A stretch of DNA of 64,000 nt from Paenibacillus sp. FSL H7-0331 (GTDB lineage Bacteria > Bacillota > Bacilli > Paenibacillales > NBRC-103111), in assembly GCF_001956045.1 (NCBI RefSeq), contig NZ_MRTH01000003.1, positions 310,001-374,000 on the forward strand. The letters are read 5' to 3'. Made by a program: the position numbers and the translations under genes. This document shows positions 34,273 through 64,000 of the stretch, piece by piece (the stretch's first letter is position 1; every line of letters begins with the position of its first letter). The notes under the pieces are model-generated. The model saw only the letters and a program-made list of their open reading frames with translations. It searched no databases and was not told the DNA's origin.

Positions 34273-34485
34273 TGTTAGGAAAATGTATATTTTCATGTTC
34301 AGTTACTTCTCAGGATGACAACAAAGGGTACGATAGTGACCTTGTAATATCATAGTGTCATTTATAATTAATGAAAGTTTAGGTAATTAGACTTGTATAA
34401 TATGATTAATTGGGTCTACAGATTCATTTATAATGTTCTTCTTATCTTATATGCTAAAGTTGTCGAATAATGATAGCTCAATTCT

Positions 34486-34578
34486 CGATAATAGCAAAGC
34501 AAGTGAAAGCTTGTGACGCAAAACTATAGGGGCTTACGGTGCAAAGCAAGATGCACCCAGCCAGCCAGCTGCCGAAGG
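34486..34578 (+). promoter_or_regulatory. Cyclic di-GMP-I (GEMM) riboswitch aptamer
   Basis: The conserved parts appear in order. ATAGCAAAG opens P1 and CTAT closes it. A short hairpin is capped by a GAAA tetraloop (CAAGT-GAAA-GCTTG). GTGACGCAAAA follows, the most diagnostic GEMM segment, then AGGGGCTTACGG, a second hairpin GGTGCA / TGCACC, and the 3' segment CCAGCTGCCGAAGG that supplies the tetraloop receptor and closing pairs. The Vc2-type aptamer has the same order. It lies 82 bases before the hypothetical gene at 34660, with a terminator hairpin in between, so c-di-GMP very likely controls transcription read-through. Whether it is an ON or OFF switch cannot be told by eye. Confidence 0.87.
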
Positions 34579-34601
34579 TACTGTGATGCGCATATAACTG
34601 C

Positions 34602-34632
34602 GACTCCCGACCAATGGATCAGGAGTCTTTTT
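34602..34632 (+). terminator. Expression-platform terminator of the c-di-GMP riboswitch
   Basis: GACTCC / GGAGTC stem with internal GA/TC pairing, followed by TTTTTG. It starts 24 bases after the aptamer and precedes the 34660 gene, so it is the likely regulated terminator. Confidence 0.75.
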
Positions 34633-34659
34633 GTTTGAGATAAGAGAGGTGGATCATAG

Positions 34660-34956
34660 ATGAACGAAAATAGAAATCTGATGACAAGAACCGGGTTTTA
34701 TACCAAGGTTGGCCCTGACATGATCGGCATTTATTTGTCGAATGATGGCCCCAAGATGTTTATTAACCGTGAGATATTTGATTTGCGGAATCCATGGTGG
34801 GATGTAGAAATGGTGATGGGGAAAACCGGACATCTGATAACATTCTACTGGCGCGGAGAGGTCAAGCTGTCGATTCGCTGTGATCTGGAAAATGACTTAT
34901 TTGTCAGCTTATATCACTATTTAAGCTTTCGTACTAATGAGCAGAGTCTCGCCTAA
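34660..34956 (+). CDS. Hypothetical 98-residue protein under c-di-GMP riboswitch control
   Basis: No family recognised. ATG at 34660 with AGAGAGGTGG upstream. The sequence is soluble-looking, aromatic-rich (several Trp and Tyr/Phe: NPWWDVEMVMG, ITFYWRGEVKLS), with no signal peptide, membrane helix or Cys cluster (one Cys). Short alternating strands suggest a small beta-rich fold. It is monocistronic between the riboswitch terminator and a 200-bp gap. Riboswitch control points to a function in motility, adhesion or biofilm matrix, which is inference from the regulator only. Confidence 0.75.
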   Translation: MNENRNLMTRTGFYTKVGPDMIGIYLSNDGPKMFINREIFDLRNPWWDVEMVMGKTGHLITFYWRGEVKLSIRCDLENDLFVSLYHYLSFRTNEQSLA

Positions 34957-35163: not shown

Positions 35164-36078
35164 ATGCGTTTAATTACACGATCCGACTTTGATGGCTTGG
35201 TATGTGCAATGCTCTTTAAAAAAATGGGAATGATCGACGAAATGAAATTCGTTCATCCGAAGGATATGCAGGATGGATTGGTTGAAGTCAATGAAAATGA
35301 TATTTTGGCGAATGTCCCGTATGTACCCGGCTGCGGTTTATGGTTTGACCACCATTCGAGTGAGTTGGAGCGGACAGGCCCAGAAATCGTATATAAAGGC
35401 GAGACCCGTGTCGCACCAAGCGCTGCCCGTGTTGTATATGATTACTATGGCGGCAAGGAACGTTTTGGTGATATCGATAACATTATGCAGGGTGTGGATA
35501 AAGCGGATTCCGCGCAGTTTTCTGCAGATGATATTTTGAATCCTTCAGGCTGGGATTTATTGTCCTTTATCATGGATGCCCGCACTGGATTAGGACGCTA
35601 CCGGGATTATAGAATCAGCAATTATCAGCTGATGGAGGATTTGGTCGATCACTGTGCGACGATGACGGTTGACGAGATTATGCAGCTGCCGGATGTTGTA
35701 GAGCGGACAAAGCGTTATTTTGAATTGGACGTCGACTATAAAGCGATGTTAAAGCAGCATACATATGCAGACGGCAATGTGATTGTCACCGATCTGCGCA
35801 ACGTGGAAACGATTTATCCGGGCAATCGATTTATGGTGTACGCCTTGTATCCGGAACAAAATATTTCGATCTGGATCGTCGATGGCCGAAACAAGCAAAA
35901 TTGTGTGTTTGCCTGCGGTCACAGCATTATCAATCGTACCTCCAACACCGACGTAGGCGCTTTGATGCTTGCGAATGGCGGCGGCGGGCATAAGGCGGCA
36001 GGAACGTGCCAAGTCCCTTATGATGATGCCGGCAAGGTGCTGCATGAGCTGGTTGAAACGATGAAGCAGAACGGATAA
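35164..36078 (+). CDS. DHH-family phosphoesterase (exopolyphosphatase-like)
   Basis: 304 residues. The DHH domain is marked by LITRSDFDGLVCAML (first metal Asp residues) and LWFDHHSSE (the DHH motif, about residues 62-65). The C-terminal DHHA1 domain has ANGGGGHKAAGTC. Relatives hydrolyse short polyphosphates, nanoRNA or cyclic dinucleotides; NrnA/GdpP-type activity on pApA cannot be assumed, since the layout is closer to the exopolyphosphatase-related group. Start ATG at 35164 after TAGGAGGAAAG. Monocistronic; a terminator follows at 36108. Confidence 0.82.
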   Translation: MRLITRSDFDGLVCAMLFKKMGMIDEMKFVHPKDMQDGLVEVNENDILANVPYVPGCGLWFDHHSSELERTGPEIVYKGETRVAPSAARVVYDYYGGKERFGDIDNIMQGVDKADSAQFSADDILNPSGWDLLSFIMDARTGLGRYRDYRISNYQLMEDLVDHCATMTVDEIMQLPDVVERTKRYFELDVDYKAMLKQHTYADGNVIVTDLRNVETIYPGNRFMVYALYPEQNISIWIVDGRNKQNCVFACGHSIINRTSNTDVGALMLANGGGGHKAAGTCQVPYDDAGKVLHELVETMKQNG

Positions 36079-62270: not shown

Positions 62271-62304
62271 AAGGAGGATCGCTCTGTTAAGCGATTCCTC
62301 CTTT
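62271..62304. terminator. Convergent terminator
   Basis: AAGGAGGATCGCT / AGCGATTCCTCCTT stem with a short loop; the right arm overlaps the 3' end of the HD-GYP gene. Confidence 0.75.
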
Positions 62305-63483
62305 GTCCTTTTCAGCCAAGGCAGCATCCGAATACAGCTCACGTACCTTGAGAATCTCTGGCAGCTGTGCCATAAAGGCATCGACGACCATTGGATCGAA
62401 ATGCTGGCCTCGTTCTTCCTTGAACAGATTGAGAATACGATCCAACTCCCAAGCCTGCTTATACACCCGCTCACTGCCAAGTGCATCAAATACGTCGGCA
62501 ATAGCGGTAATACGTCCATAGATATGGATTTCCTCACCTTGGATTCCTTGTGGGTAGCCACGGCCATTCCATTTCTCGTGATGCTGATGAGCGACGATAG
62601 CAGCTGTTTTCAAGATGCGGCGACTTGAATTTTTCAATAACCCATACCCGATATTGGTGTGCGCTTTCATGATATCGAATTCTTCATCTGTCAGCTTGCC
62701 GGGCTTCTTTAGTACGGAGTCGGGAATGGCGACCTTGCCGATGTCGTGCATAGGCGAAGCGATTTTCAATAACTCGGCTTCCTCGTGGCTCATACCTAGT
62801 TGTTTGGCCAGGATGTAAGAGTATTCAGCTACACGTTTGACATGATTGCCAGTTTCCTTGGAACGGCTCTCGCCGATCTCTCCCATTGTGAAGATGATTT
62901 CTTTTTGGGTTTCTTCAATTTCATTGGAGAGCAGGGCGGATTCCAGAGATTTTCCTGCATAGGAGGCGGCCAAGGTGAGATGCTCTAAATCCTTTTTGGA
63001 AAATTGCTCCTCGGCGGTGAGCTTATTTACAGCCTGATAAGCTCCCATTATTTCGCCCTCATTATTACGGAACGGAATGACCATCAATGCTTTGGTGCGA
63101 TAACCGGTTTTGAGATCCATGGCAATTGCGCCACTTTCCAATACATCCTTGAACTCGGTATTTACGTAGGCATCCTCTATGAAAATAGGTTGTCCTGTCG
63201 TTATTGAGTGCCCGACCAAGCCTGCATCTCGGGGAAGTCTGAGTTGGGGAACGCCATGCGCAACTGTGGAATATAATTCATTATTTTGTTTATCTATAAG
63301 CCATACCGTACATCGATCTGAAACAACCATCTCGCGGCCCATATCAGCCATTAGCATAATCAAATGATCCAGTCGTCGCTCGTTCGCTATTTTGGCTGCA
63401 TAATCAAAAATAACGAGAAGCATTTCTTCGGGCTCGAGATTTTTCTTTATTTTGAGTGTCCCAAACGGATCAGCTTCATGCAC
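62287..63483 (-). CDS. GAF-HD-GYP protein, probable c-di-GMP phosphodiesterase
   Basis: 398 residues. The N-terminal GAF domain is at about 30-190 (CTVWLIDKQNNELYSTVAHG, ALMVIPFRNNEGEIMGAYQAV) and the HD-GYP domain at about 205-390. The HD-GYP domain shows the metal-binding HD in ASPMHDIGKVAIPDSVLKKP, the GYP loop with a HH pair in AHQHHEKWNGRGYPQG and ADVFDALGSERVYK. Such proteins hydrolyse c-di-GMP to GMP or pGpG. GTG at 63483 is chosen because GGGAGGG lies 7 bases upstream and the residues match the family start; the frame extending to 63822 overlaps the divergent gene. No membrane segment. Confidence 0.88.
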   Translation of the reverse strand: MHEADPFGTLKIKKNLEPEEMLLVIFDYAAKIANERRLDHLIMLMADMGREMVVSDRCTVWLIDKQNNELYSTVAHGVPQLRLPRDAGLVGHSITTGQPIFIEDAYVNTEFKDVLESGAIAMDLKTGYRTKALMVIPFRNNEGEIMGAYQAVNKLTAEEQFSKKDLEHLTLAASYAGKSLESALLSNEIEETQKEIIFTMGEIGESRSKETGNHVKRVAEYSYILAKQLGMSHEEAELLKIASPMHDIGKVAIPDSVLKKPGKLTDEEFDIMKAHTNIGYGLLKNSSRRILKTAAIVAHQHHEKWNGRGYPQGIQGEEIHIYGRITAIADVFDALGSERVYKQAWELDRILNLFKEERGQHFDPMVVDAFMAQLPEILKVRELYSDAALAEKDKGGIA

Positions 63484-63598
63484 GTTAATACCCTCCCTGG
63501 GGTTTTGCGTTTTTTCAACTAAGAAAATCATATTATAATGCAATAGTTCTGTAAATATATATTGTAGAATTTTATCGAATAATGGAGGAAAACAATTC

Positions 63599-64000
63599 AT
63601 GTTGGACTGGTTGATCGGTTTGGCGTGCAGTTCATTCATTGCATGGGCAGCTTGGCGCAAACAATCTTTATCTGTCTCTGGAGCTATCGCTGCGGTAATC
63701 GTAGGGACCTTGTTGTATGCGCTTGGAGGACTGCCGTGGTATGGGACTCTTATGGTCTTTTTCCTTACCTCCACCTTGCTCACGAAGTGGAAGCATAAGC
63801 GTAAAGCCGTCGTTGAGAGCAACTATGCAAAGTCTGGCAGGAGGGATGCCGGACAGGTAGCAGCCAACGGAGGCTTGGGAACGCTGCTTTGCTTGGGTAA
63901 CAGCATATGGCCGCACTCGCTGTGGTGGGCTGCTTTCATGGGCATTATGGCTGCAGTCAATGCAGATACATGGGCAACAGAAATCGGCGGTTTAAGCCGT
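63599..64000 (+). CDS. DUF92 family membrane protein (partial, runs off the window)
   Basis: 134 codons are present. ATG at 63599 follows ATGGAGGAAA. The sequence MLDWLIGLACSSFIAWAAW, SLSVSGAIAAVIVGTLLYAL and GRRDAGQVAANGGLGTLL, then MAAVNADTWATEIGGLS, gives the DUF92/TIGR00297 pattern. In plants the homologue VTE6 is a phytyl-phosphate kinase; bacterial members have no settled function. At least four membrane segments are visible. Divergent from the HD-GYP gene. Confidence 0.85.
   Translation, partial: MLDWLIGLACSSFIAWAAWRKQSLSVSGAIAAVIVGTLLYALGGLPWYGTLMVFFLTSTLLTKWKHKRKAVVESNYAKSGRRDAGQVAANGGLGTLLCLGNSIWPHSLWWAAFMGIMAAVNADTWATEIGGLSR

What the first reader, a model, noticed from the sequence alone, without database searches (positions are those of the whole stretch)
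34486..34956. c-di-GMP-I riboswitch controlling an orphan 98-residue protein
The aptamer has the GEMM hallmarks (GAAA-capped hairpin, GACGCAAAA segment, 3' receptor strand) and is followed 24 bases later by a terminator and then by one small gene with no recognised family. It therefore tags this unknown aromatic-rich protein as a c-di-GMP output, probably in motility, adhesion or matrix production. An HD-GYP phosphodiesterase occurs in the same window.
Basis: partly seen in the sequence, partly recalled or inferred. Interest (0 to 1): 0.75.

Follow-up and report, generated by a model that had tools for sequence, protein, structure and literature searches.

The report
Riboswitch controlling an orphan PH-like protein
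A cyclic-dinucleotide-sensing RNA switch sits in front of a small, previously unclassified bacterial protein, and the two have stayed together across many related species, so the protein is very probably part of this signalling network although its job is unknown.

Summary
Rfam RF01051 (c-di-GMP-I) matches window 34483-34576 (+) at 60.5 bits (cut-off 35). A terminator (34602-34627, then T5) and a 98-aa gene (34660-34956) without Pfam, NCBIfam or PHROGs family follow. The gene is no strict orphan: 80 of 104 genomes of the nearest genome's GTDB family (Paenibacillus) carry it, and in 73 of the 80 a clear GEMM-I aptamer precedes it (2 more have sub-threshold matches, 5 none). It is under purifying selection (dN/dS 0.11). 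Two AlphaFold models of moderate confidence give a PH-like fold.

Best reading: a transcriptional OFF switch. Aptamer and terminator do not overlap, and a candidate antiterminator uses both the 3' strand of P1 and the terminator's 5' arm. This rests on layout and conservation; covariation does not prove it.

Correction: the specificity base (Vc2 position 20) is A here, not G, as in 4 of 72 distinct orthologous aptamers. In Geobacter, A-to-G at this position turns a cGAMP switch into a c-di-GMP switch, so c-di-GMP is likely but not settled. A link to cGAMP-type synthases was tested and not upheld. 'Motility, adhesion or matrix' remains a guess.

The parts
34440..34459 (+). Conserved promoter-like element (TCTTATCTTATATGCTAAAG; candidate -10 TATGCT at 34450-34455) upstream of the aptamer
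   Evidence: Related TTATNCT elements lie upstream of 45 of 74 distinct orthologous leaders, 5.0 expected from shuffles. The window has the variant TTATATGCT and is one of the 29 not counted. No promoter was tested.
34483..34576 (+). GEMM-I (c-di-GMP-I, RF01051) riboswitch aptamer
   Evidence: 60.5 bits, cut-off 35. Between window and P. periandrae one P3 pair changes on both sides (C-G to U-A) with the fold kept.
34483..34487 (+). P1 5' strand (UCUCG), proposed to pair with 34573-34578
   Evidence: Inferred; 82.7% of cells paired in 22 sequences against at most 60.9% when slid, but no covariation; UCG/CGA pairs in the folded aptamer.
34493..34493 (+). A at the specificity position (Vc2 nucleotide 20; numbering recalled), where most orthologues have G
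   Evidence: A in 4 of 72 distinct ortholog-linked aptamers: window, L021, L022, L089 (one search also printed L134 as A through a misplaced search start, while reads it as G).
34577..34612 (+). Candidate antiterminator (GGU 34577-34579 with ACC 34610-34612; CGCA 34589-34592 with UGCG 34599-34602), which uses the terminator's 5' arm
   Evidence: -8.7 kcal/mol, z -2.4 in the window, but z -0.4 in the near-identical P. periandrae leader and -0.67 on average over 55 leaders. Inferred.
34602..34627 (+). Intrinsic terminator hairpin
   Evidence: -12.0 kcal/mol, z -2.4; a terminator was called by script in 55 of 63 leaders examined, some of the calls poor.
34628..34632 (+). U-tract of the terminator
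   Evidence: Sequence.
34644..34652 (+). Shine-Dalgarno-like GAGAGGTGG
   Evidence: Sequence, 7 nt before the ATG.
34660..34956 (+). Gene for the 98-aa riboswitch-linked protein, PH-like predicted fold
   Evidence: Family in 80 of 104 genomes of the GTDB family; dN/dS 0.11 against P. periandrae; AlphaFold models and PDB comparison.

Best explanation
A GEMM-I riboswitch in the 5' leader switches off a stand-alone gene for a small protein with a PH-like fold. When cyclic dinucleotide is scarce, the nucleotides just after the aptamer (34577-34612) fold with the 5' arm of the terminator as an antiterminator, and the gene is transcribed. When ligand, most likely c-di-GMP, binds, the aptamer's closing helix P1 is stabilised, the antiterminator loses its 5' strand, the terminator at 34602-34627 forms and transcription stops. 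The protein is thus made when c-di-GMP is low. By its fold it is probably a binding adaptor, not an enzyme, in the c-di-GMP-controlled lifestyle programme. Shown: aptamer and terminator sequences, the gene and their conserved linkage. Inferred: P1, antiterminator, OFF direction, ligand identity and adaptor role.
For: RF01051 match. Clear aptamer just upstream of the gene in 73 of 80 genomes of the GTDB family that have it, and in single members of two other families (L134, L135). Terminator z -2.4. Aptamer and terminator do not overlap (25 nt apart), the arrangement of the C. difficile Cd1 OFF switch as described in PMC9262584 (introduction part 1 and two discussion sections read). In one subgroup with a different terminator sequence (26 of its 30 leaders aligned), a 7-bp antiterminator helix is 94.5% paired against 1.6-57.7% when slid, and the terminator 90.4% against at most 75.0%. 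In 7 further leaders (L066-L072) the minimum-energy fold has the run of U directly after a helix that closes over the aptamer, though not all of these folds keep the native aptamer. Purifying selection. The PDB rows of two models are mostly PH-superfold domains. Another GEMM-I in the nearest genome precedes a PilZ/YcgR-like gene (L005).
Against: No compensatory changes support P1 or the 7-bp antiterminator. On alignment A4 (22 of 32 leaders of the window's type) the antiterminator is only 50.6% paired, above all 500 shuffles but below two slid registers (52.7 and 54.3%), and the terminator is 75.0% paired against 84.8% at a slide of one column; A4 is one column out of register there. Antiterminator z is -0.4 in P. 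periandrae and -0.67 on average over 55 leaders. The P1-extension helices of L066-L072 and L135 have z -0.1 to -2.0. Position 20 is A. A Bacillus GEMM-I switch, Bc1, did not respond to c-di-GMP in transcription assays (PMC11218506, abstract). 5 of 80 genomes have the gene without any aptamer match (in one of them the gene is broken).
Confidence: 0.58

Rival explanations
1. Same aptamer and gene, but an ON switch: ligand binding favours read-through.
For: GEMM-I-type switches of both directions exist (Cd1 OFF, pilM ON; PMC9262584). The antiterminator is weak and not proven by covariation.
Against: In the ON switch pilM, terminator and aptamer exclude each other; here they do not overlap. Orthologues with different platform sequences also fit OFF.
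Confidence: 0.2
2. The window's aptamer, with A at position 20, senses 3',3'-cGAMP, or both cGAMP and c-di-GMP, so this species reads a different signal from most of its relatives.
For: A20G turns the Gmet_0970 cGAMP switch into a c-di-GMP switch (PMC6456294, passages). A in window, L021, L022, L089. In the genus, the only 2 of 13 genomes with a SMODS synthase hit are the two whose orthologous aptamer has A.
Against: A in place of G at the equivalent Cd1 position had no large effect (PMC9262584). A20 also occurs in other aptamers of G004 and G009, which have no SMODS hit. Over the family, SMODS hits occur in 7 genomes with G-type orthologous aptamers and not in G086, which has A (that search missed G002, so it is lossy). 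The two SMODS genes lie in unlike contexts, one with CBASS-type effectors. The closest relative, P. periandrae, has G.
Confidence: 0.1
3. A vestigial riboswitch: the aptamer is still conserved but the gene no longer responds, as reported for Bc1 in Bacillus.
For: Bc1 did not respond in vitro, and its genes did not follow c-di-GMP levels in cells (PMC11218506, abstract). In 7 of 80 genomes the aptamer match is sub-threshold or absent.
Against: Both-sides change in P3 between close relatives and retention in 73 of 80 genomes.
Confidence: 0.1
4. The Rfam match is a chance hit and the gene a spurious ORF.
For: Only the unremarkable folding energy of the aptamer (z -0.57).
Against: E 2.3e-9 in the window; linkage in 73 of 80 genomes; dN/dS 0.11.
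Confidence: 0.01

Closest known systems
c-di-GMP-I (GEMM-I) riboswitch, RF01051, e.g. Cd1 of Clostridioides difficile
   Same: Full-length model match; GNRA-capped P2; aptamer separate from a downstream terminator; proposed antiterminator that competes with the aptamer's 3' strand; expected OFF.
   Different: Specificity base is A, not G; controls a small PH-like protein, not a flagellar operon; ligand and direction untested.
cGAMP riboswitch (GEMM-Ib) of Geobacter
   Same: A at position 20 in an otherwise GEMM-I aptamer.
   Different: The described pilM case is an ON switch whose terminator and aptamer exclude each other; here they are separate. No search for Hypr-type cyclases was made, and no consistent link to a CD-NTase was found.
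c-di-GMP-I-GGC aptamer, RF03167
   Same: In several orthologues this related model wins over RF01051.
   Different: In the window RF01051 is the match reported; the ligand of the GGC variant was not looked up in a source.
Bacterial PH-like domains (solved 3b77, 3dcx, 3hsa)
   Different: No Pfam PH-type model matches any of 37 members at E<=1; conserved WDxE and FYWxGExKxS motifs define a family of its own.

Membership tests
GEMM-I aptamer (RF01051) | Covariance-model score over the curated cut-off, full length | tested here: met
   60.5 bits against 35, model 1-87
GEMM-I aptamer (RF01051) | GNRA loop in P2 for docking | tested here: met
   GAAA at 34505-34508; docking itself not testable here
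GEMM-I aptamer (RF01051) | A47 and C92 equivalents (numbering recalled) | tested here: met
   A after GACGC at 34520; CC at 34572-34573
c-di-GMP-selective GEMM-I | G at position 20 | tested here: not met
   A at 34493; this lowers the claim of c-di-GMP selectivity, not that it is a GEMM-I aptamer
c-di-GMP-selective GEMM-I | Binding of c-di-GMP with change in expression | not testable with these tools
   Needs in-line probing and termination assays
cGAMP riboswitch (GEMM-Ib) | A at position 20 | tested here: met
   A at 34493
cGAMP riboswitch (GEMM-Ib) | Host makes cGAMP | tested here: inconclusive
   Own assembly not held; SMODS hits in 2 of 13 genus genomes, no consistent link; Hypr-type cyclases not searched
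Transcriptional OFF riboswitch | Terminator compatible with bound aptamer, antiterminator competing with P1 | tested here: inconclusive
   Non-overlap is clear; P1 and antiterminator rest on conservation without covariation
PH-like superfold | Seven-stranded barrel plus C-terminal helix | tested here: met
PilZ c-di-GMP receptor | PilZ Pfam match | tested here: not met
   0 of 37 members match PilZ at E<=1

The most novel reading that the evidence does not exclude
Orthologous riboswitches in front of one gene family flip natural ligand specificity (G to A at position 20) between close Paenibacillus relatives, so that the same PH-like effector is read out by c-di-GMP in most species and by cGAMP, or by both, in the window's species, P. 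sp. 1_12 and P. agricola.
Probability: 0.08. Interest if true: 0.75.

Novelty: new member of a known kind. Interest (0 to 1): 0.5.

Why it matters
GEMM riboswitches mark genes that belong to cyclic-dinucleotide signalling. Here one marks an unclassified protein family found in 80 of 104 genomes of a Paenibacillus lineage, with a clear switch in 73 of the 80. That gives a specific, easily tested candidate for a new downstream protein in Gram-positive bacteria. The G/A variation at the specificity base offers a natural set of close orthologues for asking how readily ligand choice drifts.

Tried and rejected
Link between A20 and cGAMP synthases: striking in the genus, where the 2 of 13 genomes with A in the orthologous aptamer are exactly the 2 with a SMODS hit, but not upheld. 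A20 also occurs in other aptamers of G004 and G009 without SMODS hits (5 A among 34 typed of the 39 loci L150-L188; 5 untyped; two of the five A, L182 and L185, are near-identical). The family-wide search gives SMODS in 7 genomes with G-type orthologous aptamers, none in G086 (A), and missed G002, which the genus search had found, so it is lossy. The two synthases are of unlike kinds.

Functional hints from neighbours: among 65 loci compared, ORFs like the upstream DUF1450 protein and a protein with a weak Fe-S_biosyn match recur in 35 each, a downstream DHH-like protein in 24 and an RlmL-like methyltransferase in 40 (Pfam; the 65 include the window, at least one genome twice, and many loci reaching only about 2.5 kb to each side). 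They look like conserved housekeeping order and give no function.

Sequence search against solved structures with A2 gave only 2 insignificant matches. Weak relatives in an unnamed family f10 of the order (14 loci L136-L149, search E 2.6e-9 to 8.1e-5) have no GEMM directly upstream at gathering threshold, so the linkage belongs to the close family. Covariation counts did not prove P1 or the antiterminator.

Print: searches of the open-licence library listed no paper that I recognised as describing this gene family. I saw listings, plus passages of PMC12452182, PMC6456294, PMC8835794, PMC6274999 and PMC7266159, the abstract and three sections (one in part) of PMC9262584, and the abstract of PMC11218506. 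Subscription papers are not covered.

Full report
OBSERVATION. The whole window gives one Rfam match at gathering threshold: RF01051 (c-di-GMP-I), 34483-34576 (+), 60.5 bits against 35, E 2.3e-9 (alignment). After 25 nt comes a hairpin at 34602-34627 with TTTTT (-12.0 kcal/mol, z -2.4), then GAGAGGTGG and an ATG at 34660. The 98-aa product has no family in Pfam and NCBIfam (E<=1) or PHROGs (E<=0.1). The generic terminator scan found nothing in the region, a point against that the fold outweighs. The HD-GYP protein is real (62287-63822, -; GAF and HD_5) but 27 kb away.

THE GENE FAMILY. A protein search found 9 relatives, those with a named organism all Paenibacillus (alignment). A profile of 37 members raised this to 66. 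In whole genomes the family is in 13 of 13 members of the nearest genome's GTDB genus, in 80 of 104 of its GTDB family and, with the wider profile, in 97 of 392 genomes drawn from the order: the same 80, 3 clear members in other families (G112, G117, G121) and 14 weak ones. Invariant residues over the 37 include W47, D48, E50, G54, Y63, W64, G66, K69 and S71. Codon changes against P. periandrae give dN/dS 0.11.

RIBOSWITCH LINKAGE. Of 27 named loci, 22 have a c-di-GMP-I or c-di-GMP-I-GGC match just upstream. Further loci: 20 of 20, 17 of 20, L058, G009 and 13 of 20 at E<=8e-10. Several of these loci are the same genomes. Counted once per genome, 73 of the 80 genomes with the gene have a clear aptamer: a match over a gathering score, or, in 7 of them (in L191, L192, L194, L195, L197, L199, L200), 53.1-57.8 bits on the GGC model, below its cut-off of 59, with E<=8e-10; the RF01051 scores of these 7 were not shown. 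G091 (31.8 bits) and G094 (25.5 bits) have only sub-threshold matches. G013, G077, G081, G083 and G093 have none; in G093 the gene carries an in-frame TAG. The distance from aptamer to start codon is 32 to 201 nt, median 96, over 64 loci. Outside the family, L134 and L135 have it directly upstream; in L133 a DUF192-like gene lies between aptamer and gene. Of 14 weak relatives (L136-L149) none has a GEMM directly upstream. Each genus genome holds 4-12 RF01051 matches except G013 with 2, so this is one of several switches per cell.

MECHANISM. Aptamer (to 34576) and terminator (from 34602) do not overlap. In PMC9262584 (introduction part 1 and discussion sections 20 and 21 read) this coexistence is the layout of the OFF switch Cd1, while in the ON switch pilM aptamer and terminator exclude each other. 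In the window the segment 34577-34612 can form an antiterminator using the terminator's 5' arm (-8.7 kcal/mol, z -2.4), and its first strand overlaps the 3' strand of the proposed P1. By script, 55 of 63 leaders had a terminator call, and in 45 of those 55 at least 4 arm nucleotides pair upstream; some calls are poor (for example L022, L066-L068, L072, L073), the P. periandrae antiterminator has z -0.4 and the mean z is only -0.67. A subgroup with a different terminator sequence has a 7-bp antiterminator, 94.5% paired in 26 aligned sequences (of 30; L084, L194, L195 and L197 left out) against 1.6-57.7% when slid, but no double changes; its terminator is 90.4% paired against at most 75.0%. In L066-L072 the poly-U follows a helix closing over the aptamer in the minimum-energy folds, not all of which keep the native aptamer, with z -0.2 to -2.0. 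P1 is 82.7% paired without covariation. On A4 (22 of 32 leaders of the window's type) the antiterminator is 50.6% paired, above shuffles but not above two slid registers, and the terminator 75.0% against 84.8% at a slide of +1, because the alignment is one column out of register there. OFF is therefore the best reading, not a proven one.

LIGAND. The base 5' of the GC that precedes the conserved AAA is nucleotide 20 in Vc2 numbering (recalled). It is A in the window, L021, L022 and L089 and G in the other distinct ortholog-linked aptamers: 4 A of 72 distinct, 77 in all (one search's fifth A, L134, is an indexing slip). In Geobacter an A20G change turns cGAMP selectivity into c-di-GMP selectivity (PMC6456294, passages), while in Cd1 the equivalent change to A had no large effect. 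P. periandrae differs from the window at this base, in the GNRA loop, at a U/C, by a one-base loop indel and by a both-sides change in P3 (C-G to U-A), so the rest of the fold is kept. The cGAMP-synthase lead was tested and not upheld. c-di-GMP remains the most likely ligand. GEMM-I leaders can also be unresponsive, as the abstract on Bc1 of Bacillus thuringiensis says (PMC11218506).

VERDICT. A confirmed, well-conserved riboswitch-gene pair of a known riboswitch class with a previously unclassified protein family; OFF direction and c-di-GMP likely, function open.

Noticed in passing
L001-L005, L150-L188: A20 also occurs in other GEMM-I aptamers of the genus: 5 of 34 typed in L150-L188 (G002 three times, G004, G009; 5 of the 39 loci untyped) and 0 of 5 in G001.
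   Followed up: partly
orthologous leaders, 40-68 nt before the aptamer: Strongly conserved TTATNCT element (45 of 74 leaders, 5.0 expected), preceded in one subgroup by an inverted repeat like AGTTCTTAAGAACT seen by eye; possible promoter and operator.
   Followed up: partly
L036, L062, L026, L046: Leaders that lost or degraded the aptamer; L036 and L062 look by eye as if they keep the terminator.
   Followed up: no
L005 and L001 (G001): Another GEMM-I aptamer of the nearest genome precedes a PilZ/YcgR-like gene; L001's precedes a transglutaminase-like one.
   Followed up: partly
L189, L190: Cyclase (CD-NTase) genes: in G002 with QueC, TGT and a 2TM effector, in G011 a DncV-like piece.
   Followed up: partly
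L143, L146: A c-di-GMP-I-GGC aptamer lies downstream of a weak relative of the family on the same strand; what it controls was not looked at.
   Followed up: no
window 35164-36078: DHH-like protein downstream, recurring near the gene in 24 of 65 loci, with only a sub-threshold DHHA1 match.
   Followed up: no
L133: In one species of another family the switch precedes a DUF192-like gene and then the family gene.
   Followed up: partly
window 62287-63822: GAF plus HD_5 (HD-GYP-type) protein on the minus strand.
   Followed up: yes
L101 4352-4470: Match to the Bacillus sRNA ncr1015 (RF02449, 97.4 bits) near one orthologue.
   Followed up: no
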